Below, one piece after another: positions 1 through 64,000 of a stretch of DNA of 64,000 nt. The DNA comes from Terramyces sp. JEL0728. Lineage: Eukaryota > Chytridiomycota > Chytridiomycetes > Rhizophydiales > Terramycetaceae. Position 1 is the first letter of the stretch. Every line of letters starts with the position of its first letter. The stretch covers positions 124,001-188,000 of the forward strand of contig JADIIU010000005.1 in the NCBI GenBank assembly GCA_027603945.1, in the 5' to 3' direction. A program made the position numbers and the translations under genes. The notes beneath the pieces are model-generated. The model was not told the DNA's origin. It saw only the letters and a program-made list of their open reading frames with translations, and searched no databases.

Positions 1-2406
1 TTTGGACGATTTTCTTCATTTGAAGTTCATCTTCTTCAGTCATTTGACGAGTGGCCTTGGCAGCAACTTCTCTGTCTTCGCCGTATTGGTATCTCCATCT
101 GATATATTCGTTAGGAGTTTTGTCCAAATGCTGTTCGACGTGGTGGAAAGCGTGTTGGGCAACGTAAGCAACTCTCAAGTTAGGGTGCTTGACGACATCA
201 CCAGTGTCTGGGATGACTTCTCCGGTAAGGACTTTGATGGCGGTGGATTTACCAGCACCATTTGGCCCGATAACAGCAACACGAGAGTTCAAAGAACATT
301 GCAAGGAGACATCAAACAAGGATTGACGGGTAGCGCCAGGGTAGGTAAAGTTGATGTTGGTCATCTTCAAAATAGCCTTGTCCTTGGATTTGACACCATC
401 GAGGAAACCAGGTTCTGGGAACTTGAAGGAGAATGCAGCAGCAGACAATTCGTAGTAAGACTTTGCTTCTGGCTTTTGTTCGACGAATTTGGACAAGTTG
501 CCCTTGTATGCCTTCAATTTTCTGTTTTCGTAGTGGATAATGTGGGTACATACTCTGTCGAGGAAACTAGAATCGTGAGAAACAATCATGGAAGTAACAT
601 CCTTTAATCCAACCAAGTAATCGCACAACCAAGTGACGTTGGCAACATCCAAGTGGTTGGTAGGTTCATCAAGCAACAAGATATCGGCGTTTTCCATCAT
701 GGCTCTGGCCAATTCGAGCTTCATCTTCCAACCACCAGACAGGGAACCAACTGGTTGGGAACGACGGTATTCATCGAAAGCAAAGGATTCCAAAACACCA
801 GCAACCCAGTCTCTTTCGAATTCCTTGTCAAACAAACAAAAGTCCAAGACAGACAAGTCAGCTTCGGAAGCTTGGAGTTTGTGTTCAACGAAAACAGTCT
901 TGAGTTCGTCGGCCGGAGGGAAACCTTCAACTTGTCCGTTGGCAATAGCACGCATAAGAGTAGATTTACCACATCCGTTAGGACCGCAAAGACCGTAACG
1001 TTGACCTCTGGTCAGACGGAGTTTGGTGTTGTTCAAAAGAATCATACCACCGTACGCCAATGAGAATTCACAGTTACACAATTCTTCACCTTCATCAGCA
1101 TCATAGACATCAGCTTCCTTTTGGCGGAGTTTGTCCAATTCAGCGTAGTGGTCCAAAATTGGCTTGATGACTTTCTTGGAGTTTTCGTGTCCAAGAACTG
1201 GGTCAAGGTATGGAGTAACGCAAGTAGCCCAGTCAGCAAGGGCCAATACTCTGGAGTTGAACATGACAATAATCAAAGAAGCAACAAATCTGGCAGTGTC
1301 AACATCAAAAGTCTTTTCAGCAACCTTTTTGGTTTCGGCAAGAAGCATGTCAACAGCAACTTGGTGTTCTTTTTCCAAACGGGCTTCGACAGCAGCAGGG
1401 TCTTCGATTTCAGCAGAAGAACCACCACCGACTCTGATAAGAGTGGCTCTAGCGTTGGATGCAACGTTTCTAAGTTCTGGATCAGCAGCAATTTCAATGG
1501 TTCTATCTAAACCTGGCATGAGTTTAGGCAAGAACTGATGGGCATCAGCTGGGTTTTCTACAAGTTTACACATGTTATCAATAATAACACAGTTTTGACG
1601 TAAAACAGCAGGTTTACGTTCGGTAAGAGCACGAACCAACAAAGGAACCATGATGGCAAGAGTTGGAGCTTTGATTTCTTGGACAAAGGTGGTAGCAGCG
1701 AGCTTGAAAACACACTCTGGTACTTCTTCTGGTCTAGAGATACAAGAAATAAGAGCTGGCAAGAATGGAATAACGTCAATGTTATCCAAAGTGCCGCAGA
1801 CTTGGGTCATGCACTCGGTAGCAGCAACTTTAACCTGTTGTTAATCATTCTTCTTACTTCAGGTTTAGTAGCCCACATAGTGTCAGAGACAACTGGGACA
1901 ATTAGTGGTAAACATTCTTGAACTTGTGAAGCAGAGGTTTTGGTGAGGTTGCCCAAGAATTGAAGGGCAGCAAACTTTGTTTGCCATTTCTTTTCGTTGG
2001 ACAAGTTTTCCAACAAAATAGGAACAAGAATTGGGACGGCAAAACGAGATGGGAGAGCCATCAAGGAATCAGCTGCCAATTTAGCAGCGTCTCTAACAGA
2101 AGCTTGTTTGTCACCATATCCATTGAGAATAGCCGTGAGCTCTGGAATTAAATATGGTTCAGCAGGATGTCCCAACTGAGCAGCCAATTCCTTGTATGCA
2201 AACATAGCACCTTCTCTAGCATAGTCTGCTTTTTTGTTAAGACCAGCTTGCTTCAAAGTAGCTAAAACTTGGCATTCAATCAAGCCAAAAGAATAACCAG
2301 CGGTTTTGACAGTAGCTGCCAAGTCAGAAGCAGCCTTTTGACGTTCTTCAACTGGAGAGTTGGAAATGACGTTGGTCAGTAAGTCAGCGATTTGTTTTTG
2401 AGCCAT
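1..2406 (-). CDS. eEF3: Translation elongation factor 3 (ABC-F ATPase), C-terminus beyond window
   Basis: Ribosome-associated ATPase that helps release deacylated tRNA from the E site during cytosolic elongation; essential in fungi and also known from some other protists. The start is ATG at 2406. The N-terminal ~320 residues are HEAT repeats. The first ABC domain follows, with Walker A GPNGCGKST, signature LSGGWKMKLELARAMM and Walker B LLLDEPTNHLD. The second ABC domain has GPNGAGKST, and a chromodomain-like insert (EYIRWRYQYGED) comes just before the window edge. One 23-nt intron at 1835-1857 joins ATKPE to VKVAATECMTQV. The remaining second ABC domain and basic tail lie outside the window. 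Codon choice is strongly biased and more uniform than in neighbouring genes, as expected for an abundant protein. Identification is near certain; only the C-terminus is missing because of the cut. Confidence 0.97.
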
Positions 2407-2889
2407 CTACATTAGCGAAAAAATTACAGTTTAAATAATTAGCTGACAGAAGTGTAGTCTAAAAAAAATTTTTTTTGTTTAAATACCTGGACGGTGGGCG
2501 TGGCTGTCCGCGGGTTTTAATTGGTCAATCTAATTTTTCAAAGTTTCACAAAAGATTGGGATCTTTAAGCAACAGCAGTTCTTTCCAGCGAATGCGCCAT
2601 TTTCACGAGTAGATTTGAATATTGCAACCCCCACCAGCGTAATTTATGTTTTTTCCTTATCGCCCTATCGCGCTGCACGTTTTTTTAGTCATTTCCAATC
2701 ATTCTAGAAAACACGTGATAGCAGCCATGCTTCGTGCTACCAAAATTGTTCCCACCTGAAACACGATAGAACAATGGAGACTGAGTAATTCCATGCGTCA
2801 AGTGTTTCATATTAAACTTTTTCAGTTTCAATTTCATTCAAAAAATTTTGTGTAGCAATAAATTTTCCACCAGAGAATAAAAACGTGCG
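2407..2889. promoter_or_regulatory. Divergent intergenic region between eEF3 and MLH3
   Basis: 483 bp separate the two divergent start codons, the largest gene-free stretch in the window. Visible elements are a GC-rich patch at about 2490-2512 (GGTGGGCGTGGCTGTCCGCG), a CCAAT-box-like ATTGGTCAAT near 2520, a CACGTG E-box at 2712-2717 and A/T-rich runs near each start. The GC-rich and CCAAT elements are nearer eEF3 and probably serve that highly expressed gene. I see no ORF, tRNA or repeat here. Assignment of elements is inference. Confidence 0.5.
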
Positions 2890-4484
2890 ATGGAGAAAAT
2901 ATCGGCTCTGTATAGCTTGGACTCTTGCAAGAAGGTCTGCATTGAATTGCTCTTGAATAGCATTGATTCCCACTCCACAAGCACAGAAATAATGGTGAAC
3001 TGGAGGGATTTTTCTGTCTCATGTTATGACAACGGACTGGGATTTGCTGATTTGCATCCAATTGGTACCGCACATGGTTTTCGATCGCTGACCTAGTTGA
3101 ATCTAATAGTACTTATGGGTTTAGAGGAAGGGGTATTTGGCTTTAACCAAGCACTATACAACATTGCAATGATCAGTAGGGAGCTTGAGATAATTTCAAA
3201 GCATGAGAATACAGTTAATTACAAGATCGTAAAGCAAGGAGAGCAAGAGGTTAAACGACTGCTGCTCGGGAAAGGTACCACAGTCAGTTGCCGAGGAGTA
3301 TTCCACTCTACTCCAATGAGACAAGCTGTGGATGAATCGGATATCAAAAAAGAATTCATCCGATATGCGTTAATTAACCCTCAAGTAGCAATTTCATATC
3401 AATCAGAGCACTTGAAGTTCTCGTTGGAGAGGACAAAGTCCAGTTTGCACTCGTTTGAGAGAATTTATGGAACACAGGCAACTGAAATCCCTGAATTTGT
3501 CAGAGGCGACTTTAAAATATCTGGTTTTCACTATCAGATGGACAAACAGTTTGTCTATGTAAACAAAATACCAACCACTCTGTTGATGAAATTTTGCAGG
3601 AAATTGCTATTTGGATTTGTTCTTGATTTACGCGTTCCAGAATATTTCATTGATAGAAATGGAGAAATGATGTTCCAAGTATATTATTTTGATGCAGGAT
3701 TTAAGCTTTCTTGAGCACTTGATTGCTGAGGCACTTGGATCATCTGATGCCAAAGAAGCACATGATGTAAAACTAGAACAGCGCAATAATTTATCCAGGC
3801 CAGTGTTGATATCCAGTAATGCTAGGCCGCTATTAATCGAAAAGAGTATCGGCAGTTGGGTGAATCTGGTAAAGCTAGTGAAACAGACGATCCCCAAACC
3901 AAAACACTCGTTTGAAATCAACCTTGATTCTGAACAGCTAAACAGCTTGAGAGTAGTTGGACAAGTTGACAGGAAATTCATTGCTTGCGAAACTAATGGG
4001 TTGATACTTGTTCTTGACCAACATGCTGTAGATGAGCGAATCAAGTTGGAGCAATACTTGCATCAATTCAAAACTCAAATCAAGCCATTACAGTACGGAT
4101 TCCGATTCAACGCCTATTATCAAGAGCTAATTAAGCAATATTCCAAAAAACTACTTGGAATTGGCATAACAATGAAAAATGCAGGATTTGCAGTCACCAG
4201 AGACTACAGAACAAACGATATAAGGATTCTTGTTAATCTCATCCAAGAATCCTTGGAATATTTCGACAAGGTTGGTCTGAATCTGATTCCCAACCCAGTT
4301 GTAGATCATTTCAAATCAAAGGCTTGTAGATCTGCAATCATGTTTGGCGCCAAATTAAGTAACAACGAATGTGAAAAGCTATTGGGTGAATTGCTACAGT
4401 GCAAGGTAAATTGATGCTCAATAGTTTCCATTCCAATGCGCTCATGGCCGACCATCAATTGCTCCGTTGATTTCGTATAAATAA
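2890..4484 (+). CDS. MLH3: MutL homologue MLH3 (meiotic crossover endonuclease subunit)
   Basis: The MLH1-MLH3 heterodimer (MutL-gamma) nicks joint molecules to make meiotic crossovers. The model is 505 residues from four introns (3077-3096, 3133-3151, 3679-3697, 4406-4424; 20, 19, 19, 19 nt). The GHKL ATPase has the N-box ELLLNSID, DNGLGF, and after splicing YGFRGRALYNIAMIS. The C-terminal half has the endonuclease motif DQHAVDERIKLE, ACRSAI and, in the last exon, FPFQCAHGRP, all MLH3-type. The glutamate and asparagine of the N-box are kept. Two oddities: the normally invariant GFRGEA reads GFRGRA, and the segment that usually contains TSK between DNG and YGFRG is short. The protein is much shorter than animal MLH3 because the central linker is small. 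PMS1/PMS2 is excluded by the C-terminal motifs. MSH4, its pathway partner, lies about 4 kb downstream. Confidence 0.93.
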
Positions 4485-8670: not shown

Positions 8671-11272
8671 ATGCTTTCCAATAATCCAGATACTCCTTAT
8701 GAGTCTCAGAGCAGACCATCCACTTCAAAGTCCCTTTCTCTATTCGGAACGAGGCCTTCAACTGCAATGTCCAAATCAGTGATTTCACCCATGATAGTTG
8801 CTATTTCAGAAGCAAGAGGTGCTTACTCAGAAATAGGATTAGTCTCTCTGGATCTTGAAACCTCGCTGTGTACAATCACTCAGTATGCCGACACTGCTTC
8901 CTATGTACACACCATTCATAAATTGGGAATCCTAAATCCTGCCAAAGTGATTTTCTCAAAGTCATGTATTGATCCACCTTCCTTGTTGTATCAAGCAATA
9001 GGTGATTGATGTTAACTCAGCACAAGAAATTGAATCAAGTCTTTATCCATCAGATCGCGGATGGTTTAATCAAGAGTATGGAATGGAAACACTGAAGCAG
9101 TATTGTATAAAAGAAATCAATTTCTCGATTGCAAGTCCTATTTAACTGTAGAATGGAAAATACTATGCGCTGGCTGCTATATCTGCATTGTTCAAATTCA
9201 TTGAATATACACAGAAAATGGTATTCAAGAACCACTCTGTAAAATTTTCCTATGAATCCATTGACGGAACAATGCTTATTGATTCCACTACTGCCACATT
9301 ACTTGTATCTATAACTTATCTAGGAATTGTTTGCAAACAAGTTTGGCAATAACAGAGCGTGTTTGTTGGGTTTGTTGGATAAAACGAAAACCGGGATGGG
9401 TACAAGACTCTTGAAATCAAACATTTTGCAGCCATTAAGAGGTTTCTCTCTCTAATTAGATATTGAAACAATTTCAAACCGACAAGATGCTATTCAAGAA
9501 ATCCTTGAATCAGAGTCATTACTTTATGAATTAGCAAAGGATTTGAATGATATACCTGATTTAAACAAAGTTATAACAGGGTTGATCCAAATCCCAAAGA
9601 AAATTACTACAAAATACTCGGAACAGTCCATCAATAGAATCCTGGCGCTAAAATTCGCTCTACAAAAGACTCAGGTACTAGCAGAGTGTATGGACACTGC
9701 ACAAAGCCCATTGTTGACCAAAATTCACAAAGTACTGATGTTTAACGCAGATAATCTCTGATCCTTGCATAGCCTTTATACTCGCCCACATTGACACTAT
9801 AATTGATCCAGAAGTACCTCTTTTTCTTTAACACAAGGCCAATTTTGAAAAAACTCCAATTGGTTTAAGAAATCAACGATGCCATGCAGTTAATTCCAAC
9901 TTGAACCAATTACTGGATGTAGCGAGACAAACATATAAGGAAGGAACCAATGATATCCATGAACTACTTGAGCATTACTATCAAGAATATGAACTACGGA
10001 TTGAATTAAAATTCAAGAATGCAGATGGCTATTCAATGTGCATTGGTGAAGATCAATTAGAAAGTGGATTACCACCAGAGTTTGTCAATCAGCAAAACAA
10101 GAACTCTAAAATCTATTTTACAAGTATGCAAATGGTAAACTTGAACATGAGAATCAAAGAATCTCTCAAGGAAATTTACAAATTGAGTGAAGAGTAACTT
10201 TTGTTAATCAAGGGAAATAACCAAATTGGTTATCTATGTTCATGAATATCTACCTATTTTCTACAGATTGGCCGAAGCAATAGGTCTGTTTAACTTAATT
10301 AGCCCTACTTGATGTCATAGTTTCTCTTGCCAAAGTCGCAAACCTTGATGGATATACAAAACCAGAATTTACTGATACTCTTGCGTTCAAAAACTCTAGA
10401 CATCCTGTAATGGAAAGAGAATTGATGTTCAAACCAAATGATGCATTTGCAGATTCCCAGTCAAGGATACAACTTGTTAGTGGTGCTAATATGTCAGGGA
10501 AATCAACCTACTTGACGCAAATTGCTTTAATTGTGATTATGGCACAGATTGGCTCTTTTGTCCCTTGTGAATTTGCAACTGTGAGAATTACAGACAAATT
10601 ACTTGCGAGAATTGGACATGATGATAGCTATCAAGCACAGATTTCTTCGTTTACAAATGAAATGTATGAAACTTCATTTATTCTTGATAATTTCACCGAT
10701 GAATCTCTCATTATCATTGGTAATTCATTTTAATACCAGATGAGCTAGGACGTGGTACTTCTACATCAGATGGAACAGCAATTTCAATCGCGGTCTGTGA
10801 ATATCTACTCCAAAAAAAGGTATTTCATTCTAACCAAGGCTTTTGTGGTTTTTGCAACTCATTTTGACAAAATTTACAATTTCTTGTCAACTGGACCAAA
10901 CGTATTGATCCTACACTTTCAGTGCCCTGACTCTCTCCACTGCTATACGATCAAGAATGGAGCATGTACAACAGAGTGTTATGGGGTTGAATTAGCAAAA
11001 AAGGCAGGGTTTGGTGCAGAATGCACGACACAAGCAGCCGAAATATCCCAAAAGCTCAGGGATACTTGGAGAGAATTGAATGAGAATAATCCTGTATATC
11101 TCGAACGAATCCTTCTTTCGCAGAAACAAAAGGTAAAATTAGAGTGACAAAGACAATTCACCAATTGGCTCAAATTCTCAATCACTCTACTCTGTCCAAC
11201 GATCAGGTCCGTTTGATTTTAATCAAACTTCAAAACAGTCAAAGAAAGTCGAATAAATTGTCGCATTTCTAA
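8671..11272 (+). CDS. MSH4: MutS homologue MSH4 (meiotic crossover factor)
   Basis: MSH4-MSH5 (MutS-gamma) stabilises recombination intermediates for class I crossovers; it does not repair mismatches. The model is 794 residues in 12 exons; introns at 9002-9020, 9131-9151, 9305-9323, 9442-9459, 9732-9750, 9814-9837, 10194-10212, 10284-10302, 10720-10739, 10820-10838 and 11133-11152. As in the family there is no mismatch-reading domain I; the protein opens with a disordered Ser-rich stretch and then EARGAYSEIGLVSLDLE. Diagnostic blocks are PLRDIETISNRQDA, the clamp, KPEFTDTLA, Walker A GANMSGKST (Pro replaced by Ala), Walker B IIIDELGRGTSTSDG and FATHFDKI. The intron at 9131 has a GC donor. MSH4 rather than MSH5 or MSH2 is supported by the N-terminal block and by EFTDTLA. 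Confidence 0.93.
9131..9151 (+). other. GC-AG ultrashort intron in MSH4 (21 nt)
   Basis: The intron begins GCAAGT, the classical GC-AG donor consensus, and ends TTTAACTGTAG. Removing exactly these 21 nt joins EINFSI to NGKYYALAAISAL in frame and deletes an in-frame TAA. The alternative GT donor two bases downstream would give a 17-nt intron and break the frame. Confidence 0.75.
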
Positions 11273-20000: not shown

Positions 20001-20254
20001 AATAAATTTCCAATTACCAATTGCATACGATCCTGGCCTTTCATTGCAACAGAAAATAGTGTTTCTCCAAACTGACTGAATTGAGAATCCATTGAAACCA
20101 ATTTTTCAAATCCTGAGCGACCAAGTTCAAAAATAGTTTCTCTATCAATATCTGCCGCTGCTTTCGCATCGAATAGCAACGAAGCTCTAGTTTTTGACGG
20201 CAATGGCGCCTTACTAGACGCTATTTGCTGGAGTTGTCTTTCCAAGAAGGACAT
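14044..20254 (-). CDS. UTP10: UTP10/HEATR1, U3 snoRNP small-subunit processome component
   Basis: A very large HEAT-repeat protein of the t-UTP subcomplex that couples rDNA transcription to 18S rRNA processing in the nucleolus. 2015 residues; introns at 19998-20017, 19859-19878, 19745-19762, 19601-19620, 19209-19229, 14825-14845, 14680-14700 and 14460-14481. The N-terminus is typical: MSFLERQLQQIAS, RASLLFDAKAAADIDR, then ALEWLVRRFK. Most of the protein is one 4.4-kb exon of helical repeats. The C-terminal BP28CT domain is clear: DWGLASEN, FTYDTNGF, VRWVALSLISELYLRLGEE, PETIPFLAELMEDEDPEVE and LGEPIQQYF. Introns cluster at the two ends, the usual pattern after partial intron loss. The V-ATPase gene starts upstream on the same strand with an 88-bp gap. 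Confidence 0.95.
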
Positions 20255-20342
20255 TTTCGAATTAAAAAAAAATATGAAATTTTTTGACTTTGTGCCAGAG
20301 CTGGACGTATTAAAAATAATAGAGTTTATTGCCTATTAATCA

Positions 20343-20943
20343 CTAAGATGAAGGGCATGATCCGGTACTAGCTTTAGTGTTCAAAATGAGAGCGACGATG
20401 AACCCATACAACCCCAAAACTTCAGCGAAAATCAAGATCAAAATCATACCTACATAAAAAACCAAATACCGACAAACAATCTTGGCTGTTGAGCAGATCC
20501 TCTAACACCAGCGTCTCCAACGACACCAATAGCGAATCCAGCGGCCAAACCAGATAAACCGACACTTAATCCAGCTGCAAGAGAAATAAATCCTGCGTAT
20601 AAAGTCATTTCTTGCTGAACTAGTGTAAACAAATTGGCTTACGTCCACCAGAAACAAGGACAGCGACCACGACACCATAAATACCAACGATACCAGCCTA
20701 CTGTTAGTTGAAAGCTTTACCATGACAATAGGAATAGCGTTTTTAATAATAAGTTCAGGACGCATAACACCCATTGCACAAATACCAACACCAGCCTTAG
20801 CGGTACCGTAAGCTGCTCCGAAACCTGAAATTAGCAATTGACCTACAGCAGAACACGATCGCAATTGCGCATCCAAGTGCTGCAAAGAAAGGACTCGCGT
20901 TAGTTGCGTTATACCTGTAAGAAGGACAAGCTTCAGAAAACAT
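20343..20943 (-). CDS. VMA3: V-type H+-ATPase proteolipid subunit c
   Basis: Membrane rotor subunit of the vacuolar proton pump. 163 residues, the normal length, in six exons; introns at 20894-20914, 20825-20846, 20698-20720, 20620-20642 and 20450-20469, so 18 percent of the gene is intron. Spliced blocks: [90 protein letters not shown] and [18 protein letters not shown]. The last contains the essential proton-carrying Glu of the fourth helix. The tail [10 protein letters not shown] resembles subunit c more than c''. A c' (VMA11) assignment is possible; c and c' differ little. Confidence 0.94.
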
Positions 20944-21235
20944 TTCAAGATTAACAAACTTTTTTCGTGTCGAATGAGATATCAAGCCACAAGATGTTAG
21001 AACTAGGGCTGCTACACTGAAAACGTATAATATCTAGCCTCCCAGATGGGTAATAGCGGCTGGTATTCTCAGTTATTACTGTTGCACTAGGAAACAGTGC
21101 GCAAGCAAGTGGCCGTAAGCAGGATTTAATAAAATATGGTATCAATACTGGCTCCGGTACAGGTTCTCTTTATTTCCTAGTTTGTGCGTGACTGGCTGTT
21201 TTTATGTTTGGGTAAACAAATCACCTTGTTCCAAA

Positions 21236-22718: not shown

Positions 22719-22725
22719 ACTCTTC

Positions 22726-24570: not shown

Positions 24571-24588
24571 TTATACGCGAAATGATTT

Positions 24589-27500: not shown

Positions 27501-27619
27501 TTTGATTGATGGTCAATGTGTTCCATTAAATGTAAACAATTTTTGTTGACCATTCCCATTGTTTGATCATGCCCAAAAGTATTCAACTGGAAAGGTGACC
27601 ATAATAATATGGTAAACAT
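24589..27619 (-). CDS. Ras guanine-nucleotide exchange factor (RasGEFN + CDC25 domains)
   Basis: Activates a Ras/Rap-type GTPase by nucleotide exchange. 963 residues, eight exons; introns at 27274-27292, 26522-26540, 26363-26381, 25976-25995, 25811-25830, 25243-25263 and 25039-25059. The N-terminal ~110 residues (LILNSLYYLADTEINVKSRY) look repeat-like, perhaps ankyrin, without a firm match. A disordered Ser/Pro-rich part follows, then an unassigned region from MKIWVDNEFHDCIIRID to about residue 520. RasGEFN is at ~530-620 (HFIWMVLQCYRGFIDGVTLL). The catalytic domain runs from ~700: HFNNISYWVATEICTQPEMK, NNFNSLLAIVSGLNLVSVSR, LKATWE, SYIPVLSLLLKDLFFMNEGN and INFDKITLIYNHIVHF. The start could instead be the Met at 27559 or 27553, since ATG 27619 is only 11 bp after the nicastrin stop. 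Its target is unknown; a Ras-like GTPase gene lies at 38864-39820. Confidence 0.88.
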
Positions 27620-27630
27620 AATACAATTTA

Positions 27631-29637: not shown

Positions 29638-29771
29638 TTTTGATTTGGTTGGCTTTTCACAAAATCAAGCCCAACCAAATCCAAATTTCAGTAACAGTAC
29701 TCTTAGACCAGGATGAATATATTAGCTTATCAAAGAAATACCAGCAGTCACTGCAAAGCTTTAAGATAGAT

Positions 29772-46497: not shown

Positions 46498-49103
46498 ATG
46501 AAATTGCTCCCAAAGGAAATCGACAAACTATTATTGATTCAAGCGGGCAGTCTTGCTCAACGAAGATTGGCTCGCGGGGTCAGATTGAATCAGGTTGAAG
46601 CTGTTGCATTGATTTGCACAGTATTGATTGAACATGTTAGAGGTGCAATATCACTTAATTAGATGGAATACACTCACTATCAACCTTGGCTTCACTTGGA
46701 GCACAGTTATTAGGAAAGAGAGTGGTGCTACCTCAAGTTGGTTCTTCTTTAGACCACGTATCAGTAGAAGCTACTTTTCCTGATGGAACAAAGTTGATTA
46801 CGGTTCACAATCCAATATCTACCTTGAACGGTAACCTGGAAGACGCATTGTATGGTTCATTCCTTCCAGTGCCTTCTTTGGACAAATTCCCAGCCGTGGA
46901 AGCAGATGATGAACCTGGAAAGGTTATTTAATATTAAATGTAGGTTGTTGTGCTGAAATCTGATATTACCCTGAACCAAGGTCGTAGACTGCAGTCAATT
47001 GTTGTGACAAATAACGGGGATAGACCCATCCAAGTTGGATCGCATTATCATTTTATTGAAACCAACGCACAACTCGCATTCGATAGAGAATTAGCCTACG
47101 GCTATCGCTTGAACATTCCCGCAGGAACTGCTGTTAGATTTGAACCTGGCGAGAAAAAGAAAGTTGATTTGGTCGAAATCGCTGGAAATAAAATAATAAC
47201 AGGGGGTAATTGTTTGGCAACTGGAAAGTATGATGTTTCTACTGTTCCTGCTATTTTGAAAAAGATTCAGGAGCAAGGTATATTCTATTAACATAGGTTT
47301 CCTTCATGTCAAGCAGCCTAATCCTGGTAAAGCTAGCGTAATCAAAATGAGCAGAGAGAGATATGCTGCAGCTTATGGCCCAACTGTTGGTGATCAAGTT
47401 AGGCTGGGAGATTCCAGTCTCTACCTTGAAATCGAAAAGGATTTTACTTCCTATGGTGACGAATGCGGTAACTTTGAACTTAATCAAGTATTTGGTGGTG
47501 GCAAGGTCATTAGAGAGGGAATGGGCCAAGCAACTGGAGTTAAAGACGCGGATGCTCTGGATTTGGTTATTGTCAATGTAATCGTTGTCGATTTCTCTGG
47601 AATCTACAAAGCAGATATTGGTATTAAAAATGGATATATCAAAGGTATTGGAAAAGCTGGAAATCCTGACGTGATGCACGGTGTTACCCCTGGAATGGTA
47701 ATTGGAGCAACTACTGAGGTTTTAGCTGGAGAGGGGAAAATCATTACTGCTGGTGCTATAGATACGCACATTCACTTTATTTGTCCACAGATCTGTACCG
47801 AGGCATTGTATTCTGGTATCACCACTGTTATTGGAGGAGGAACTGGCCCAAATACTGGTACTAATGCAACTACTTGTACTCCTGGAAAATTCCACATTAA
47901 GGCAATGTATAAATCAACAGATGACTTGCCATTAAACTTTGGATTTACTGGAAAAGGTAATTCTAGCTCTGTTGTCGGACTTGAAGAGCAAATTGAAGCC
48001 GGTGCAATTGGTTTAAAGCTGCATGAAGATTGGGGAACCTCGCCTTCTGCTATTGATACGTGTCTAAAGGTTTGCGATAAATACGATATCCAAGCTACAA
48101 TCCATACAGATACATTGAACGAATCGGGCTTTGTTGAAACCTCAGTTGCTGCCTTCAAATCCAGAACCATTCATGCCTACCATACCGAAGGTGCTGGTGG
48201 TGGCCATGCGCCAGATATAATTTGTGTTTGCGGGGAATTGAACGTTATCCCATCCTCAACTAACCCAACGAGACCATACACCAAGAACACATTGGATGAG
48301 CATTTGGATATGTTGATGGTTTGTCATCACTTATCCAAAGACATACCAGAAGATATCTCATTTGCCGAATCAAGAATTAGAGGCGAAACAATTGGAGCAG
48401 AAGATATTCTTCACGATAATGGATCTATTTCAATCATATCGTCAGACTCTCAAGGTAAGCACTTTTCTAATATAGCCATGGGCAGGGTTGGCGAGGTGAT
48501 CTGCAGAACATGGCAAACTGCTCATAAGATGAAAATAAACCGAGGAAAGCTATCAAAAAGCGAAAAGGGTGACAATGATCGTATCAAGCGGTACGTATCA
48601 AAGTATACTATTAATCCGTAAGCTTTGATTGACATAGTGCTCTCGCCCATGGTATTTCTCACGTTGTGGGATCTGTAGAAGTTGGAAAACTCGCGGATTT
48701 GGTCCTGTATTCCCCAGCATTCTTCGGGACAAAGCCAGACCTTGTACTGAAAGGCGGATTAATTGTCAGTTGTCAAATTGGAGACCCCAATGCTTCCATT
48801 CCTACTCCCCAGCCTGTTCATTCAAGACCAATGTTTGGAGCTTTCCCTTCAGTTCTTTCTATGAATTGCTTTGCATTCATTTCTAAAGTCTCAGAGTCTA
48901 ATGTGGCAGGCTATCAATTGAAAAAGAAGCTTGTGCCTGTAAAAGGCTGTCGATCTGTAAAGAAAACAGATATGAAGCATAATAGCCATACTCCAAAGAT
49001 CACTGTGGATCCTGAAACTTATCAAGTTACGTGCGACGGTGAAATTTTGAAATCGTTGCCAAGTGAAAGGCTACCAATGGCTCAATCTGTATTTTTGATT
49101 TAA
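46498..49103 (+). CDS. Urease (single-chain gamma-beta-alpha fusion)
   Basis: Nickel enzyme that splits urea into ammonia and carbamate. 841 residues, the size of fungal and plant urease; introns at 46643-46662, 46923-46943, 47278-47296 and 48618-48637. Order: gamma part ([20 protein letters not shown]), beta part ([20 protein letters not shown]), alpha part from [20 protein letters not shown]. Active-site residues are visible: HIHF, the carbamylated Lys in [13 protein letters not shown] and the flap region [12 protein letters not shown]. The C-terminus VLGSLPSERL-like block reads [14 protein letters not shown]. Accessory proteins UreD/F/G are not in this window. The gene ends 19 bp before the UNC13-like start on the same strand. 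Confidence 0.97.
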
Positions 49104-54312: not shown

Positions 54313-57300
54313 ATGACACTAGTGTTAGACGAGCTTCTCGCCTTTCGAGAAGATTATCTTCGACAGGGCGGCAACAACACCAATATCTTATTACAAATTT
54401 CCAACCTAGAAAAAGAAATACTAAATACGAGATCCAAACATGACACTTCAAATAATGGCATTTTGGATGAAATCAAAACCAACCACGAAAAAGAAATTCT
54501 AGTGCTTGAGAATGAACGAGAAAAATCTATATTACAATACGAAATCGAACAACTTCATTGGTAGTTTTTTCTAATGCTTGTCTATTAACATCTGAAAAAA
54601 GCAAAGAAAATGACCAATACTATGTTGTTGATATTGCAGACTTGAAAAAAGCAAAATATATTAAAGAGATAGGATTTGTTCTTGAATTTTTATTCTGTAA
54701 AACTCAGGACAATGATTCAAACATAAAGTTGACATTCTCGATATTTCAAGGCGATAAAGCCAAGACCAGCATAAAAACAATTCATAGCAAGGAAAACAGC
54801 AGAGGAGTGTATATTTTGTCCCAAAAGCAGTCATATTCGAAAGTAAGCAGTATCTAATATAACAGTTTGATTCAAATGACGGGGTAAAAGTAATAATGGA
54901 TGTTCGCAAACTAACAGAATCGTCAAGAGAGAAAAAAATAGGATGGACCTCTTTTCCTATTTTCAACAAAAATGGCGATTTACACTATGGCCACTGGAAA
55001 ATTAACTTGAATTACTACCCAATTAATTTTATAGATGAAACTTTTGACAACTCCCAAAAGAACTTCAATTGCCAAATAGTATATCGTATTTATCCCAATT
55101 ATTCACCTCAACCTGAAAGGCTCCTCAAATTAATTGCAGATGAAAGCATATATCTGAATTTTCAATGCCAAAAAGAATACAAGTCCGAAATGCCAGCACA
55201 ATCAACAGATGTCGTGTTGCCTCCTGAACTTAAAATTGAACCATTGGGCGAGCCAAATATAGTCACATCAAAGAAATTGCCTTTCCTGAAGCAAGACAAG
55301 CATAAACACGAAAGTAAAAATATAAAGCAGGAACAGAAAAACGCTCCGCAAAAAACAAACACAGAAGCTACTGCTGAGCAGCCTATTTCTACAACAAATG
55401 AAGAGAAAGTGACCAAAAAAGTTGGTAGCAAACAACTTTCTATTGGGTTTCAATTCAGCGAAATCAATAATCTGAATTGTCCTCAGTCTGCAAAATACTT
55501 GCTAAACTTTAAAGCCACTGATGGCAAATCATCCACTCTACTTTTTAAAACATCGGAATGCGAGGTACTCTTTTTCTTACCAACCCAAGCCTGGAATAGT
55601 CAGCAATCAGTATGGCTGGGAATTTGGATACTTTTCAGAAACATTAATTGATTTGTCTTCAAAGAAAGGATGCATCGAGCTTGTAGTAAATATCTATTGT
55701 AATTTTAGGGAATAACCTCCAAGAATACCTCAGAAAAAGTGTTGGCAAGTGCAACCTTTGACATGTTTAAATATCATTTTTCGGAGCCATTTGGTTATTC
55801 ATCCTTAATTCATAGATATAAACGATGGATCCCAATCTATTATTTTGGAAGGAGAAACCCTCATCGGAAAGGCCAACCTCCCTGTTCGTGTGTATAAGCC
55901 AAAATTTGGAAGACCAGCAATTAAAAAATTTTGTCCGAGACTAATTGTTCCAGATATTCCCGAAGAAGCATTTTACTTTGTACCTGTTCAAGTGGACGAC
56001 TCTGGGAGCAAGGACGATATCAGTTCAATTACAATTTACATTGATGCAGGTCCCTTTTGTTAATATAGGCCGATTTTTACCAGATAACTGTACCGCTACT
56101 CGCATCTCTGGCACAATATATAATATAGGGAAAAGATCCCTCTTAAAGAATTGTAAGATTGTCACAAAACAGGATCTTGATCAATCTGTGTACAATCCTG
56201 AATATAAGGTATTTTAAACTAACATCTAGTACTCGGTCACATTTAAAAAAGGCGATGTACCGGCCTACAGCTTGCTTTTATTAGAAATACAAACTCTCGA
56301 TATTATTTCGAGAGAAATCACCACCGTTGGCTTTGCAAGTGTGCCATTATTTTCTGCAGCTGAGTCGCAGAAACCCACCGATTTTAAATATCTATTTGGT
56401 GCGTTTCAAATTCCTATATATGTAGACCCTTTTAAACAAGAAAATTGGGGCAGTTTTTGGAAACCTAACGGTATGAAGAGGTTTGAAAGAGCACTAATCA
56501 AAGGACCAGAGTTCCTTGTGCCACATTACTTGTTAGAATCAGTGCTAATGAGGGGGAAATAGCGGAATATTCCTCCAAACAGTTTCAGACATTTGAAGTT
56601 GATAAACCACTGTCTAGTGATTTAAACTTGTACTATTTTGTATATTCTCAAAAAAAGTCATTTAGCGTTCGAGACAGATTATTAGCAATGGGAGACATTC
56701 CCAAAACAGTAACGCAAACTGAAGAAAGTTTAACTGTGTGGGCTACAAAACTATTCGAACAGAAAAGAAGTATAGCGGAATCAATTGATCTGTCGTATAT
56801 CGCAAAGTATGATCCAGCTTATGGATTTAAAATTGCGATAGATAAGGCTGAAAATTTGGAACAAAAAGGATTCACGGTCGCAGTAATTAGCTTTTCGACA
56901 TATCCCTTTAAAAAGGATCAAAAATTGAATTTGAAATACCCAAATGATATTTTATATACAAAATTTACCAATTTAAACTCAGAGTACAAACATCCCGAAT
57001 TCGACGATGGATATTTTGTAAGTAGGGTTTTATTAAGTGGTATAGACGTAGAAATTTCAACCAAGATGTTTGGACAATAATTGAGCTGTTCTCTATTTCC
57101 AATGAGGAAATTGATTCGATTGTAACAGTAACTAATGTAGGGATGGACTGCATGTCCAGTATTTCACCCACAAAAATATGTAAGAATGGGGAGGTATCAA
57201 TTACCATTATTTGAGGGTGATATTGATATTGAAAGCTTAATGCCCTACACTACCTTTGAGGATGCATGGAAAAACGAAGAATTGAGTGTATCTAAAAATT

Positions 57301-57547
57301 TTGGTTCAGTTACCATCCGAATTGTTGACGGCAGAAGAGAATCAGAGATAACCAAAGAGTCGGTAATAGCCAATTGACGCAGAACATCTCGGCTTACTTT
57401 CTTGGCGCAAGCTCGTCAAAATTCAAAAAGAGCGGCTATTCAAATCTCGTAAAGTCACTTAAACCAAAGAAATTGTCCAACGAGGAATTCGTAGAACAGG
57501 CCTACGCAGCCTTCGTTGATTACACGAACTTGCCATATATACCTTAG
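54313..57547 (+). CDS. CCDC17-like protein (coiled coil + repeated C2-like domains)
   Basis: 999 residues in 12 exons; introns at 54561-54580 (or to 54601), 54843-54865, 55565-55589, 55686-55708, 55794-55815, 56050-56068, 56209-56229, 56481-56503, 57018-57037, 57122-57140 and 57363-57382. A short coiled coil comes first (residues ~25-83). Two beta-rich modules follow, each with a GWT..P(I/V)F..GR/GHW motif (GWTSFPIFNKNGDLHYGHW and GWTACPVFHPQKYVRMGRYQ). Between them are the blocks IDAGRFLPDNCTATRISG and RTRVPCATLLVRIS, which I recall from animal CCDC17. A Lys/Thr-rich linker separates parts. Animal CCDC17 is expressed in ciliated cells; its role is unknown. The family name is from memory and deserves a search; the gene itself is secure. 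Confidence 0.65.
54561..54580 (+). other. Second candidate GT-TG intron (20 nt), or 41-nt GT-AG alternative
   Basis: GTAGTTTTTTCTAATGCTTG carries a CTAAT branch motif and ends TG. Splicing it turns HW-stop into HCLLTSEKSK in frame. An intron extending to the AG at 54601 (41 nt, with TTAAC at 54585-54589) also keeps the frame, but would be by far the longest in the window. I cannot choose from sequence alone. Confidence 0.4.
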
Positions 57548-58284: not shown

Positions 58285-58311
58285 AATCCCAAAATTTTTG
58301 AATTTCAAAAA

Positions 58312-58734: not shown

Positions 58735-58736
58735 AA

Positions 58737-59363
58737 TTACTCGATATCTTTTATTATAATCTTGATGGAAATTGGATCTATATCTTCAGAAATGGAGATG
58801 GTTGCTTGATGTTCACCAATTTCCTTGAATCTCCCTTGAATTTTTTCCTTGTCAATGTTTATATTCAAATTTAGTAAGGAATTTGCGATATCAGTTGGGG
58901 TGACAGACCCGAATATTTTGTCAGAGTCCTTCTTAATTCTTACTCTTTGAAAGTCCAAACTTTGAATTTTTAATACCGCATCTTTCAGTTCTATATCCGA
59001 CATGATGTGTTCAATTTGCTCAATTGGATTTGCTGTTTGAATCGAATTGATATTGTAAGGAACAGTGACTACAGCAGGAGTAATATTTTCCAAAACATCT
59101 GCAGTTTCTTTTAATGGAGGAACCCAATTATCTGGTAAAATAGGTATTCCTCTATGTCTTGGCACATAATAGGCTTTTTTGAATGGTACCAAGTAATTCC
59201 TAGCATAACCCAAGTTTGCAAGGACGATATCCCCTGCTTTTCCCAGTCCCTCCACGTTTTCCTTGAGAAATAGATGAATGTCCGGCTTCTTGAATTTAGT
59301 CCTCTATCATTAATGAATAATCACTATCTGGTGTTTTAAATTTACTGGAAATAACAATTTCAT
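58737..59363 (-). CDS. MRPL9: Mitochondrial ribosomal protein bL9m
   Basis: Large mitoribosomal subunit protein. 201 residues, two exons; intron at 59304-59324 (21 nt) after the first 13 codons (MKLLFPVNLKHQI). The bL9 N-domain is clear: IHLFLKENVEGLGKAGDIVL followed by GYARNYLVPFKKAYYV (bacterial-type GLGKKGDVV..GYARNFLIP). The C-domain keeps SDKIFGSVTPTDIANSL, the RKDG..LFGSVT equivalent. A linker of about 60 residues lies between. Start ATG 59363 is divergent from a small ORF at 59395. Confidence 0.9.
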
Positions 59364-59394
59364 TTTTTTGATTGAGAAAAAAAAGTTTGAAATA

Positions 59395-59517
59395 ATGCCA
59401 AAGTCTGCTCGCACAATCTTTGGAGGAAACAACTTGGCTCAGGCTGTAATCCTGGCTGCTTGCTGCTTGCTGATGCTGATTAATGATTCTGTGCGTAGAA
59501 ATTTACTCAGAGTTTAG
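59395..59517 (+). CDS. Possible small single-pass membrane protein (40 aa)
   Basis: ATG 59395 opens 40 codons with one hydrophobic helix (LAQAVILAACCLLMLI) between a short basic N-terminus (MPKSARTIFGGNN) and a basic end (DSVRRNLLRV). Size and shape resemble small mitochondrial or ER membrane subunits (for example Tom or OST4-type), but there is no diagnostic motif. A 20-nt intron at 59489-59508 (GTGCGTAGAAATTTACTCAG) is also possible and would change the last residues. The divergent position 31 bp from the bL9m start supports a real gene. Confidence 0.4.
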   Translation: MPKSARTIFGGNNLAQAVILAACCLLMLINDSVRRNLLRV

Positions 59518-59635
59518 TTTGCGTGCACGGTTCTCTCTGTAGTTGATTTCAGCCCAATATCAAGCATAAAATCAATGAGAATATCTCAAGGGAATACTGG
59601 TTATAAAAGTTTGCTTTTTCAAAAAAAAGTGTGAA

Positions 59636-60238
59636 ATGCAAAACCCAAGTTCATCTCCAACCACAGGAGCAGTAGCACAGTTGAATCGAGTACTTGAAAG
59701 TTAAAACATTAGAGATATCAAAAGCTACTAGATGATCTAACTCCATTTACAACCCAAAGGTGGACTGGAACAGGGATTCTTGGTTTACTGTATATTATCA
59801 GGGCAGTTACTGCTAATGGCTGGTATATTGTTACAGTAGATTGTTTTTAATTGCAGTATGCCCTCGGAATTTATTTGTTGAATGTATTCCTTGCATTTTT
59901 GACACCTAAATTTGATCCAGCTCTTGAACAAGAATTAAACGATGCAGAAGATGACGGTCCAATGCTTCCAACAAAATTGGATGACGAATTCCGCCCCTTT
60001 ATCAGAAGATTGCCAGAGTTTAAATTTTGGTAACTGAATTTAATCCAGGTATTATTCCACAAGGGCTTTCTTGATTGCTTTCACCTGCACCATGTTTGAC
60101 GCTTTTGATTTACCTGTATTCTGGCCTATCCTTTTAATGTATTTCATTTTATTATTCATCCTCACAATGCGAAGACAAATTCAACACATGATAAAGTACA
60201 AATATGTTCCTTGGAATTTGAACAAAAAAGTACTTTAA
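59636..60238 (+). CDS. RER1: RER1, Golgi-to-ER retrieval receptor
   Basis: Multi-spanning early-Golgi protein that returns escaped ER membrane proteins and unassembled subunits. 179 residues, four exons; introns at 59690-59712, 59836-59856 and 60030-60048. Family blocks: [86 protein letters not shown] and [18 protein letters not shown], then [16 protein letters not shown]. Length matches yeast Rer1 (188). Mammalian RER1 also acts on gamma-secretase assembly, and nicastrin is encoded here, but 30 kb away. Confidence 0.96.
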
Positions 60239-60314
60239 ATTAATCTTAGAAGTATAATGCAGCCGCACCAGCGAAACCAAATCAATAAAGATATTCTAAA
60301 CAAAACTTGTTTAA

Positions 60315-62448
60315 TCAAATAAAAACGTAGCTGATAAAGGAGCTATAGTCGTAGCCTTCAGCTTTCTTTGGCAATTGTGTCTTCAAATACTCTACTACTT
60401 GCGGAGTTAATCCACCGCGGTAGAAATCAGCTTCGGTGACAAAGTCTTTGTCTCCAGCCAATGCCTTGAAAGCAACAAACAAGTGATCTTGGGTTAATTT
60501 GTCTTCCTCTAAGCTTCTGGCGTATTCAATAAACTATTTTAGCATCATATTACTTGTTCAAAGTTAATTTCATTGGAGCCTTGAGAAGTCTTCAAGAAAG
60601 TGTTTTCAAATTCGTTTTGGTCAAGAACAGTACCTTCTGCTTGCAATGCAGCTTTGAATTCTTCACGAATGAGGCCATTGGAGTTGTCTTTGTCAAAGAT
60701 GCGGAAAGTTTCGGAATACTGTTCCAGTTGTTGCGGAGTAAAGTTGGTCTTTGATCTGGCGATAATTTGATTTTCAATGAATGCAGTCTTCTTTACTAAG
60801 CTTTGAGCAACCAATTCATATTCAAAGGACAAGTCTTCAACAGAATAAATAGTGTATCTAGGTTAAGAAAAAGTACTCATTGTCTTCAATATTGGCTTCA
60901 ATTAATTGGGAATCTAATCCAGTCAATTCAGACAATTGTTCGCCAAATGGAGTGATCTGGCTTTGCAATTTTTTGGTAACTAGAAGTTGAGTTTCAAGCC
61001 CGCCATCTAAAGATGCTAATTGCAGGGAAATATTATTCAAAGCTTCTTGTATTTGACTAGCAGCATCTGCAAACTTTCTTCTCAAAGCATCTTTAGCACT
61101 TTTGTTAGTACCATATTACTCTCGAATGTAGTTGGTCAAAGTTCTCTTTCTTGAGGCTTCGGATAGAACAAGGGCTGTCCAGTGACTGTCAAGTTGGTCT
61201 TTGGTCAAATGGGCTGGTGGAGCATATGATCTCAAATTATAGGTCTTTAATTTAGTTTGGATATTTCCAAGCAACGAGTCCAAATCTCTCCTTTCAGTCA
61301 CCCATCCTCTCTTTTTAGTTCCTTTGTATTTTTCGAATTCCAAAAGTTGGGTTCTCGCATCCAAGTATCCAGAGAATTGCGGATTGACCCAGGTTCCTTG
61401 GATTTGTGCTAAAGCGTCAATTAGTGCAGTGGCTCTCTTTTCATAATCGTTTTGCATATCCCAAACGTTTTGAAGAAGCTTCAATTAAAAACGAATACCA
61501 GTCCTAATGCGCCAACTCTTCTTCCTGCAACACCAAATTTATCCAAAGCAGAGAATGCGTGGAAATATTGCGCAACGTACGTCATTACGGATCTTTCATC
61601 AGGCTAATTTAATTTTGAATTACTCTGATTACATCGACAACATCCTCAACTGCAAACAGTTTTGGAATACCCAAGTGCTTTTCTGCAATATCGAATGCTA
61701 ATTGGGTATTTGCATGCTTTTGTTTCTGATATTACGCTATGATTACCTTGTCCAAGGCCCAGTAATTCAAAAGGTCTGGACGATGGCGATGGATCAAGGC
61801 ACACAATGCAAGACCATCCATCCAGCTCGAAGTAAAGTTTGAAATCTTGAAATCTGCCTCGTAAGGAGCAGTTCTTCTTTGACACCACAACAAAAGACCT
61901 TCTTTGGCAGTCAAACCTTCTTCGCTGATTTCTGCAATGGAGAATCGCAAAATAATTGTCCAAATCAAACCCAAAATCAATTTTTCATTAGAGTCGACAA
62001 TATCCTACAGTTATAACAAAATACTTCTGCTCCGATATTGGTGAGATTTACCCCTCTCTTCTTGATAAATTCTAATGCTTTGTTCTGATTTTCAATTTTC
62101 TGCAGTCTAATTCTTGGATTTCTGTTGAATTTACCAAGAGATTCGTCCCCGATAACCTCTATCGTTATACATTATCTACGCAACAATAAAATCAAATTTT
62201 CTCCGTTTGAAAGATCGGTTGTCAAGTCTACAATTGGTGGAGCACCGCATTCCTTCAGGTGGATATTTATCCAGTTGGTAAAGGCTGGCGTTACTCGTTA
62301 ATTACTCTTTTTTTGTACTTGCTCCCAACTCTTGTCAAAAATTCTATATTAAATAAGCGGGTTACTTGGCAGTGTCAGTAACTGTTTCTGTCGCTGCTTT
62401 GCTCAAATCTTGGTTTGAAGTTTTCACAGTAGTAGTTCTTTCGAGCAT
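60315..62448 (-). CDS. Alpha-actinin (short, yeast-like form)
   Basis: Actin cross-linker. 642 residues in 11 exons; introns at 62344-62365, 62285-62305, 62159-62179, 62005-62024, 61726-61746, 61604-61623, 61479-61498, 61099-61119, 60858-60876 and 60534-60553. Two CH domains form the actin-binding region: [20 protein letters not shown], then [20 protein letters not shown] and [20 protein letters not shown]. The neck [20 protein letters not shown] matches the conserved linker after CH2. The rod is short, about two spectrin-like repeats ([40 protein letters not shown]). The C-terminal calmodulin-like part has one canonical EF-hand loop ([17 protein letters not shown]: [13 protein letters not shown]). 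Size and rod length resemble fission-yeast Ain1 (two repeats), not animal actinin (four). Confidence 0.94.
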
Positions 62449-62562
62449 GATTCAAAAGTTAAAAAATTCACGTCACCAGATAGGGGATTTGCATATCGCG
62501 GATGACGTTGAATAAACAAGAATAAAAAGAAAGTGTTATTTTACTATAAAAAGATCCAGCCA

Positions 62563-64000
62563 CTAAGGTTTCTTTACTTGGCCATCGTGGCTCTTGTTTT
62601 GGAATGCGAAGCTAACTAATTTGGTAGCTCGTGCTTGAGCGTTCAATATTGGATCAAACACCTTGTGAATTTCCATTTCGCTATAGTGATTCCATGTGCT
62701 AGTATCAGCAGCGGTTGCCCCAGTGTTTATCGCGTTTTCGGGTGGTCTAATGAGCTGCTTTCCGTTTTGGCACCGCTTGCATCTGAAAGTGTCGTGAGTA
62801 TCGCAGAGAGTATCTTCATTGAACTTGAATAGTTGCCGGAGATTTTCCAAAGAGAAGTGTCTTTCTACATCTTGCTCTTCATCGACCACACACGAAGACA
62901 GGGACTGCTTGTGTGCCTGACCTAATTATTACATACAGTTTACGCTGGAATATTTTTTCTTCGATAGTGCCAGTAGCAATAAATCGATAGATGAAACAGA
63001 CCTTTTTCTGTCCATCTCTCCAGACTCTTGCCAATGCCTTACATCAACGCTAATTACCTGAGCATCATTTGCGGGATTCCAATCTGGATCAAACAAAATC
63101 AATCTATTAGCACCAATCAAATTAATACCACAGCCCCCAGCTTTGGAAGACAGCAAAAATATAAATTCTGGCTGGGAGGAGTCATTGAATCGGTCTACAA
63201 TTTTTTGTCTTTTTGGAATGGTCATACTCCCGTCCAATCTACAAAAGGCCCATCTCCTTGCCCTGCACATCTTGTCTATATAATCCAATGTCTGAGTATA
63301 GTTGCTGATCAATACTACGATTAAATTAACGTACCAATTTTGTCATCTGATTCTTTTTTCATTTGAACAATCATTTGCTCTAACAAACAGAATTTACCAG
63401 AGAATTCAGGTAAACAGTCATTGAAGTTGAACCCTGGTGGCAACCAGCTGCCGGGAACATCTTTTGCAGTCAATAATGCAGGGTGGTTGACAATCTTTTT
63501 CATCGTAGTCATTGCTTTCAAGGTAGACTGCCCACCTTTCTTTTCGTTGTTTTCAGATTTAATCAATCTCTGCATCTCCTGTTGAGCATAATGTTTGTAC
63601 AGCTTCTTTTGGAATTCAGCCATTCGGCAAAACACTATATATTCATATTTCGTAGGCAGGTATTTTGTGAGTAGTTCAGCGGTTCTTCTAATAATGAACT
63701 TATTGGCGGTGGAAAGCAATTCCTGAAGACATTCTTCACTTCGAAGCTTGTCCTTGTCAGTTGCATCAGCATCTCTTCCTCGCAGAATTGGAATTTCGTA
63801 CTTCTTTCTAAATTCTGCACCAGTTCCAAGCACATTTGGGATGGCAAAACTAAGCAAACTAAAATATTCAGTCAGGTCATTTTGAATAGGGGTTCCGGAG
63901 AGTATCACCCTTCTCTTTGCATTCAAGGCATTCAAAGCAATATAGGTTTGTGAGTCTGCATTTTTTAGTCGATGGCCTGTATTAAAATCACGTACCTTCA
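62563..64000 (-). CDS. RAD54: RAD54 Snf2-family recombination translocase, N-terminus beyond window
   Basis: dsDNA translocase that drives strand exchange with RAD51. The C-terminal ~450 residues are present; introns at 63977-63995, 63315-63334, 63038-63057 and 62922-62943. The window edge cuts inside the DEGH box (..[18 protein letters not shown]). Then come helicase motif [23 protein letters not shown] and the long RAD54 insert. C-lobe motifs are [68 protein letters not shown] and [40 protein letters not shown] and a CxxC end (CKRCQ) are RAD54-specific. Together with MLH3 and MSH4 it shows an active recombination system. Confidence 0.95.

What the first reader, a model, noticed from the sequence alone, without database searches (positions are those of the whole stretch)
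1835..63995. Genome-wide ultrashort introns: 129 introns of 18-27 nt, none longer
Every interrupted gene here is repaired by removing 18-27 nt (mostly 19-21 nt) segments that start GT and end AG, at conserved family positions. All complete spliced models then have lengths divisible by three. Examples: MLH3 4406-4424, urease 47278-47296, alpha-actinin 60858-60876. Introns this small are known from heterotrich ciliates (15-16 nt), Paramecium (20-29 nt) and chlorarachniophyte nucleomorphs (18-21 nt); I know of no fungus-like nuclear genome where they are universal. About 129 introns in 64 kb also means the genome kept many introns while shrinking each to near the physical limit.
Basis: partly seen in the sequence, partly recalled or inferred. 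Interest (0 to 1): 0.88.

Follow-up and report, generated by a model that had tools for sequence, protein, structure and literature searches.

The report
Chytrid fungus with 20-base introns
In the genome of a chytrid fungus, most of the removable segments that interrupt its genes are only about 20 bases long, close to the smallest sizes known, which makes the fungus a possible new model for how small an intron can get.

Summary
The window is from Terramyces sp. JEL0728 (Chytridiomycota, Rhizophydiales) or a near-identical strain. With a flat length prior and no motif, GT..AG alone among the boundary pairs tried peaks at 19-21 nt. Protein-to-genome alignment with introns free from 4 to 400 nt finds the same introns. 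All 20 sampled 10-kb stretches of other contigs have them: 202 calls of 18-24 nt, mean 20.1.

Corrections: a 41-nt intron is likely inside the window (54561-54601). Elsewhere, introns of 54, 67, 114 and about 120 nt interrupt chaperonin and ribosomal-protein genes. One window intron looks GC..AG.

Geometry: the branch A is at intron base 14 or 15 in 329 of 377 short introns, before 14 in 3; 5-6 nt follow it in 327. Four long introns keep a 6-nt tail, with the extra length upstream. Best reading: ordinary U2-type introns shrunk to a steric floor. U2 snRNA, Prp8, SF1 and a U2AF2-like gene are present; U1 and U6 were not found. No RNA data were available. My searches of open papers found no fungal precedent.

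The parts
1835..63995. region of the finding; 108 calls of 18-27 nt on both strands in the window, listed with sequence
4406..4424 (+). 19-nt intron, MLH3
   Evidence: missed by the gene finder
9002..9020 (+). 19-nt intron, MSH4
9131..9151 (+). 21-nt GC..AG intron, MSH4
9305..9323 (+). 19-nt intron, MSH4
9442..9459 (+). 18-nt intron, MSH4
9732..9750 (+). 19-nt intron, MSH4
9814..9837 (+). 24-nt intron, MSH4
10194..10212 (+). 19-nt intron, MSH4
10284..10302 (+). 19-nt intron, MSH4
10720..10739 (+). 20-nt intron, MSH4
10820..10838 (+). 19-nt intron, MSH4
11133..11152 (+). 20-nt intron, MSH4
   Evidence: missed by the gene finder
47278..47296 (+). 19-nt intron, urease
54561..54601 (+). likely 41-nt intron, the one window intron over 27 nt with homology support
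   Evidence: 3 of 4 spanning proteins; weak motif
54843..54865 (+). 23-nt intron
   Evidence: 5 of 5 proteins
55565..55589 (+). 25-nt intron (part of what the gene finder called 144 nt)
   Evidence: 4 of 5 proteins
55686..55708 (+). 23-nt intron (other part of the 144-nt call)
   Evidence: 3 of 5 proteins
55794..55815 (+). 22-nt intron
   Evidence: 4 of 5 proteins
56050..56068 (+). 19-nt intron
   Evidence: 4 of 5 proteins
56209..56229 (+). 21-nt intron
   Evidence: 4 of 5 proteins
57122..57140 (+). 19-nt intron
   Evidence: 3 of 5 proteins
60534..60553 (-). 20-nt intron, alpha-actinin
   Evidence: 6 of 6 homologs
60858..60876 (-). 19-nt intron, alpha-actinin
   Evidence: 6 of 6 homologs
61099..61119 (-). 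21-nt intron, alpha-actinin
   Evidence: 6 of 6 homologs
61479..61498 (-). 20-nt intron, alpha-actinin
   Evidence: 6 of 6 homologs
61604..61623 (-). 20-nt intron, alpha-actinin
   Evidence: 6 of 6 homologs
61726..61746 (-). 21-nt intron, alpha-actinin
   Evidence: 5 of 6 homologs, the sixth giving 117 nt
62005..62024 (-). 20-nt intron, alpha-actinin (47 nt in the GenBank model)
   Evidence: 6 of 6 homologs
62159..62179 (-). 21-nt intron, alpha-actinin
   Evidence: 6 of 6 homologs
62285..62305 (-). 21-nt intron, alpha-actinin
   Evidence: 6 of 6 homologs
62344..62365 (-). 22-nt intron, alpha-actinin
   Evidence: 5 of 6 homologs, the sixth alignment starting after it

Best explanation
These are ordinary U2-type spliceosomal introns (GTA..YTAAY..YAG) of Terramyces sp. 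JEL0728 or a near-identical strain, worn down by deletion to about the minimum that its spliceosome accepts. That minimum is the sum of two distances: at least about 14 nt from the first intron base to the branch A, and about 5-6 nt from the branch A to the end. The first distance has a floor but no ceiling, because some genes also carry 54-123 nt introns with the extra length upstream of the branch site; the second stays near 5-6 nt in both size classes. Shown: the segments, their lengths, boundaries, motif, geometry, frame effects and the longer exceptions. Inferred: removal from the RNA in the living cell, deletion as the route, and crowding of the 5' splice-site helix against the branch helix as the cause of the floor.
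For: Peak at 19-21 nt for GT..AG only, against 11 decoy pairs in the window and 6 in 320 kb. Same introns from protein-to-genome alignment with lengths free from 4 to 400 nt, where decoy boundaries score lower. Present in 20 of 20 sampled stretches. Branch A at base 14 or 15 in 329 of 377, before 14 in 3; tail of 5-6 nt in 327. Motif-free set: 64 at 14, 39 at 15, none at 12 or 13, of 132 with a clear site among 212; decoys spread out. Homology-only set: 29 short introns with an exact site have it at 14-18. The 54, 67, 114 and 123 nt introns each have an exact site followed by 6 nt. U2 snRNA at 140 bits with GTAGTA; Prp8 PROCN at 774 bits; SF1-HH at 66 and 43 bits; U2AF large-subunit match at 252 bits. 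The GenBank alpha-actinin model has 9 of the 10 introns with the same ends.
Against: No RNA evidence. The two distances are uncorrelated (0.01) only in the motif-model set, whose scoring favours short tails; in the motif-free set the correlation is -0.70, with 18 sites at bases 8-11, which I take for false sites without having tested it. 80 of 212 motif-free introns have no clear branch site, and 14 of 47 homology-placed ones have no exact YTRAY near the end. The 41-nt intron does not fit the fixed tail. U1 and U6 were not found; the U2AF match is below the family cut-off of 310 bits as a whole. The gene-finder set and the length prior were built partly on the same sequences.
Confidence: 0.85

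Rival explanations
1. A specialised spliceosome that measures the intron and needs about 20 nt; longer introns are removed poorly or not at all.
For: Narrow distribution: 371 of 377 introns of 17-27 nt are 18-23 nt.
Against: CCT gamma, alpha and epsilon and uL30 need 54-123 nt segments removed to match their solved relatives, next to 20-22 nt introns with the same motif.
Confidence: 0.08
2. The segments are not spliced but tolerated in another way: read through, bypassed in translation, removed at DNA level, or sequence errors.
For: No RNA data were seen, and the GenBank models themselves disagree at some places.
Against: GT/AG ends with a branch-site motif at a set place, not shown by decoys; in-frame stops and frame shifts; a U2 snRNA and splicing proteins in the genome.
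Confidence: 0.03
3. On the side question of why a few long introns remain: they persist because they carry something, such as small nucleolar RNAs. The alternative is that they have simply not shrunk yet.
For: The uL30 (RPL7) intron of about 120 nt contains a match to snR39 with GTGATGA and CTGA boxes, 28.7 bits. I recall that yeast snR39 and snR59 sit in RPL7 introns.
Against: The match is under Rfam's cut-off of 40 bits, E 0.43. No family was found in the 54, 67 and 114 nt introns, which also match nothing longer than 14 bases elsewhere in the sample. No snoRNA reached its cut-off in 277 kb.
Confidence: 0.4

Closest known systems
Chlorarachniophyte nucleomorph introns (PMC4494063, passages)
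   Same: Many GT-AG introns of 18-23 nt with modes at 18-20; two exceptions of 40 and 41 nt.
   Different: Relic endosymbiont nuclei with some 290-600 protein genes each; U4 absent. Here a 15-Mb fungal genome with introns up to about 120 nt.
Mikrocytos mackini introns (PMC10245619, passages)
   Same: Numerous, very narrow length range, conserved motif.
   Different: 16-17 nt; a parasite with a strongly reduced spliceosome and 224 introns in all. Here mode 20 nt, far more introns, and longer ones too.
Stentor coeruleus introns (PMC9505925, passages)
   Same: Branch A at a fixed place, 5 nt before the end.
   Different: 15-16 nt with the branch A at 10-11 and no strong branch consensus. Here base 14-15 with a clear YTAAY.
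Paramecium and Nyctotherus introns (PMC5014332, abstract start in the listing)
   Same: Genome-wide ultrashort introns.
   Different: Around 25 bp, ciliates.
Introns of other fungi and chytrids (PMC8476143, passages)
   Same: Intron-rich chytrid lineage (3.93 per kb in two species).
   Different: Its example of relatively short introns is Cryptococcus at a mean of 63 bp; here about 20 nt.

Membership tests
U2-type spliceosomal introns | GT-AG (rarely GC-AG) ends | tested here: met
   GC-AG
U2-type spliceosomal introns | branch site near the 3' end that fits the U2 recognition sequence | tested here: met
   YTAAY; U2 carries GTAGTA
U2-type spliceosomal introns | removal restores a protein continuous with its relatives | tested here: met
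U2-type spliceosomal introns | spliceosome encoded | tested here: inconclusive
   U2, Prp8, SF1 found and a U2AF large-subunit match under cut-off; U6 not found; U1 not found, but that search proves nothing by the tool's own note; U4 and U5 not tested
U2-type spliceosomal introns | excision seen in RNA | not testable with these tools
   no reads available
genomes with ultrashort introns (nucleomorph, mikrocytid, heterotrich type) | bulk of introns under 30 nt | tested here: met
   377 of 399 calls are 17-27 nt
genomes with ultrashort introns (nucleomorph, mikrocytid, heterotrich type) | practically no longer introns | tested here: not met
   54, 67, 114 and about 120 nt introns; likely 41 nt
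genomes with ultrashort introns (mikrocytid type) | reduced spliceosome | tested here: inconclusive
   three proteins and U2 looked for and found; no full inventory
snR39-type C/D snoRNA in an RPL7 intron | Rfam match over the cut-off | tested here: not met
   28.7 bits against 40

The most novel reading that the evidence does not exclude
A family of free-living, culturable chytrid fungi (Terramyces and Boothiomyces) has independently reached nucleomorph-sized introns while keeping SF1, U2AF2 and a strong branch consensus. Intron length there reads out two separate minimal distances of a spliceosome that is not reduced, and the few longer introns are those that carry cargo. Public gene models of these fungi lose exons because of it. 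That these fungi are free-living and culturable is recalled, not tested.
Probability: 0.45. Interest if true: 0.85.

Novelty: new variant of a known kind. Interest (0 to 1): 0.74.

Why it matters
It puts genome-wide ultrashort introns in a fungus, so extreme shortening would need neither a ciliate nucleus, a relic endosymbiont nucleus nor a mikrocytid parasite. Short and long introns side by side in the same genes make the minimal distances of the spliceosome testable. It also warns that surveys leaving out introns under 30 bp (PMC10639083, passage) cannot see such genomes, and that GenBank models of these fungi appear to skip exons.

Tried and rejected
A flat-prior gene finder up to 300 nt scatters long 'introns', mostly low-coding stretches absorbed into genes as I read them. 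Of 22 calls over 27 nt, four are placed by homology (54, 67, 114, 123) and one is likely (41); 144 nt was resolved into 25 + 23, and 205 nt in MSH4 into short introns. The other 15 were not tested by homology, among them 78 and 143 nt in L026 and 215 nt in uL30.

Idea that long introns share an AGATCT hairpin element: the 54-nt intron has a perfect 8-bp stem, but no repeat turned up in the sample. U6: two weak matches are near-identical to each other and lack the U6 core; two patterns gave nothing above control or nothing. The SSU rRNA search did not complete. The ureB sRNA match was not taken as an RNA gene.

Dropped before the count of 47 homology-placed introns: P0006's 117 nt; P0121's 106, 206, 59 and 46 nt; P0125's lone 24 nt; the 14 + 4 nt pair replaced by the GC-AG intron; places in 54313-57547 where fewer than three proteins agreed (several, with choices of 8-270 nt); alignments of L001-L004 to paralogs (choices of 12-107 nt); a 20-nt gene-finder call in CCT gamma before the aligned part. 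For uL30 the alignment gives 117 nt and the gene finder 123; 123 was used. CCT alpha, gamma, epsilon and uL30 were picked because long gaps were seen, so the share of long introns in the 47 is biased upward. GC-AG at 9131-9151 is the best of 15 boundary pairs against P0121 (334, next 328), but against P0122 a 12-nt AT-AG choice scored higher (146 against 138).
Full report
WHAT THE SEQUENCE IS. The window lies at C5:124001-188000 of a 15.0-Mb assembly of 231 contigs. The spliced alpha-actinin model (60315-62448, -) matches HDV01_005698 of Terramyces sp. JEL0728 at 99 percent identity over the full query, and the gene at 54313-57547 matches another protein of that species at 86 percent over the full query; both sit on a 266,629-base contig. 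Terramyces is in Chytridiomycota, Rhizophydiales. That it is a free-living saprobe is recalled, not tested.

IS IT REAL. A gene finder with codon scores only, a flat length prior and no splice motif places 18, 27 and 14 introns at 19, 20 and 21 nt in the window at one setting; at that setting GT..AG has 63 calls of 18-22 nt and eleven decoy boundary pairs have 4-13. In 320 kb from 36 sequences GT..AG has 191 calls of 18-23 nt and six decoys 23-49; in the other length bins GT..AG has no more than the decoys. A motif learned outside the window, with a flat prior to 300 nt, gives 67 of 109 calls at 18-22 nt. With a length prior set by hand it gives 111 calls, 108 of 18-27 nt.

Independent route: I aligned homologous proteins to the DNA with introns free from 4 to 400 nt and nothing but GT..AG required. 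For alpha-actinin, 4 of 6 homologs give the same ten introns, 19-22 nt, at the same bases; one alignment starts after the first intron and gives the other nine; one replaces a single 21-nt intron by 117 nt. For MSH4, three of four references agree on 18-24 nt introns over the stretch they share, with one place that the GT..AG rule could not fit. There a 21-nt GC..AG intron (9131-9151) gives the best score against one reference and the second best against another. The fourth MSH4 reference is discussed below. GenBank's alpha-actinin model has nine of the ten introns with the same ends and stretches one from 20 to 47 nt.

IS IT GENOME-WIDE. I sampled bases 20001-30000 of 20 other contigs. All 20 have such introns, from 1 to 20 each: 202 calls of 18-24 nt, mean 20.1, plus 12 longer calls. 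Scaled up, that is roughly 15,000 in the genome (my extrapolation). In 221 kb of predicted coding sequence there are 399 calls of all lengths, 1.8 per kb; known introns were missed, so this is probably low. Two other chytrids average 3.93 per kb (PMC8476143, passages), so this lineage may also have lost introns, or my count falls short.

Longer introns exist. In the window, 54561-54601 (41 nt) is chosen by 3 of 4 spanning proteins, one of them the GenBank model of the same species and two from Boothiomyces; the fourth gives 38 nt. Its motif is weak. Outside, CCT gamma, alpha and epsilon and uL30 align to solved relatives with no gap near the junctions once 67, 114, 54 and about 120 nt are taken out, and the alignment with free lengths chooses 67, 114, 54 and 117 nt. 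Of 47 introns placed by homology, 42 are 18-25 nt and five are longer. These genes were partly picked for their long introns, so the true share is lower.

GEOMETRY. In 377 short introns the branch A is at base 14 (172) or 15 (157) and before 14 in three; 5 or 6 nt follow it in 327; the two distances are uncorrelated (0.01). That set was scored with a motif that favours short tails. In the motif-free set 132 of 212 have a clear site: 64 at 14, 39 at 15, none at 12-13, 18 at 8-11, 11 at 16-21; here the correlation is -0.70, which I put down to false sites near the 5' end without having tested it. Decoys have a clear site in 57 of 193, spread over bases 7-22. In the homology-only set 29 short introns with an exact site have it at 14-18, none lower; 14 of all 47 have no exact site near the end. 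The 54, 67, 114 and 123 nt introns all have an exact site followed by 6 nt; the 41-nt one does not. So the tail is mostly held, and the 5' segment has a floor without a ceiling.

MECHANISM (inferred). The 5' splice site must pair with U6 and the branch site with U2; with a few linking bases these helices would need about 14 nt (recalled structural knowledge). Stentor, whose branch A is at base 10, shows no strong branch consensus (PMC9505925, passages), which fits but proves nothing. After the branch there is no room for a pyrimidine tract, yet SF1 is present over cut-off, and a U2AF large-subunit match covers most of the model at 252 bits, under the family cut-off of 310 as one piece. U2AF might read the T-rich stretch before the branch; untested.

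SISTER GENUS AND ANNOTATION. The Boothiomyces sp. JEL0838 MSH4 model lacks residues 329-349, 469-524 and 628-657 in Terramyces numbering, where splice junctions lie at 328.0, 349.0, 467.7, 491.3, 630.3 and 657.0. The first gap is exactly one exon; the second starts and the third ends at a junction. Three of eight other references have no such gap, and five have gaps of their own, mostly at the N-terminus. In Terramyces itself one GenBank model has 391- and 79-nt introns where related proteins show several of 19-25 nt. I infer that gene predictors skip small exons between ultrashort introns and that Boothiomyces shares them. No Terramyces MSH4 was among the 120 listed relatives.

LITERATURE. 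Nine searches of open-licence papers, several with capped lists, showed no report of ultrashort introns in a chytrid or other fungus among the listed papers. The library lacks most subscription papers. Precedents in other lineages: nucleomorphs 18-23 nt, Stentor 15-16, mikrocytids 16-17. One pan-eukaryotic survey left out introns under 30 bp.

VERDICT. A real and strong pattern, overstated in one respect, in an unexpected organism. New as a fungal case as far as I could search; the phenomenon itself is known in other lineages.

Noticed in passing
window 9131-9151: A 21-nt GC..AG intron in MSH4 with GCAAGT donor and TTTAAC before the end.
   Followed up: yes
P0121 (Boothiomyces sp. JEL0838 MSH4, GenBank model): Lacks three stretches that start or end at Terramyces splice junctions, one being exactly an exon; suggests exon skipping by the gene predictor and shared ultrashort introns.
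   Followed up: partly
window 54313-57547: GenBank model of this species has 391- and 79-nt introns where related proteins indicate several of 19-25 nt.
   Followed up: yes
window 58737-62448: GenBank model HDV01_005698 runs from alpha-actinin into the neighbouring gene (bL9-like by my reading) through a 1023-nt intron.
   Followed up: partly
L012 3082-3204: Intron of uL30 (RPL7) contains a snR39-like C/D snoRNA match, 28.7 bits, under Rfam's cut-off of 40.
   Followed up: partly
L007 reverse strand 1704-1757; L005 reverse strand 1434-1500: The 54- and 67-nt introns contain AGATCT inverted repeats that can fold; no repeat family seen in the sample.
   Followed up: partly
window 47511-47800 (-): Rfam 5_ureB_sRNA match of 82.6 bits lies antisense inside the urease gene; probably just urease coding similarity.
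   Followed up: no
whole genome G000: No convincing U6 found by covariance model or two patterns; missing from the assembly, interrupted or divergent.
   Followed up: partly
L029 and L030 (contigs C199 and C111): The two weak U6 matches are near-identical stretches on two contigs, perhaps a repeated element.
   Followed up: no
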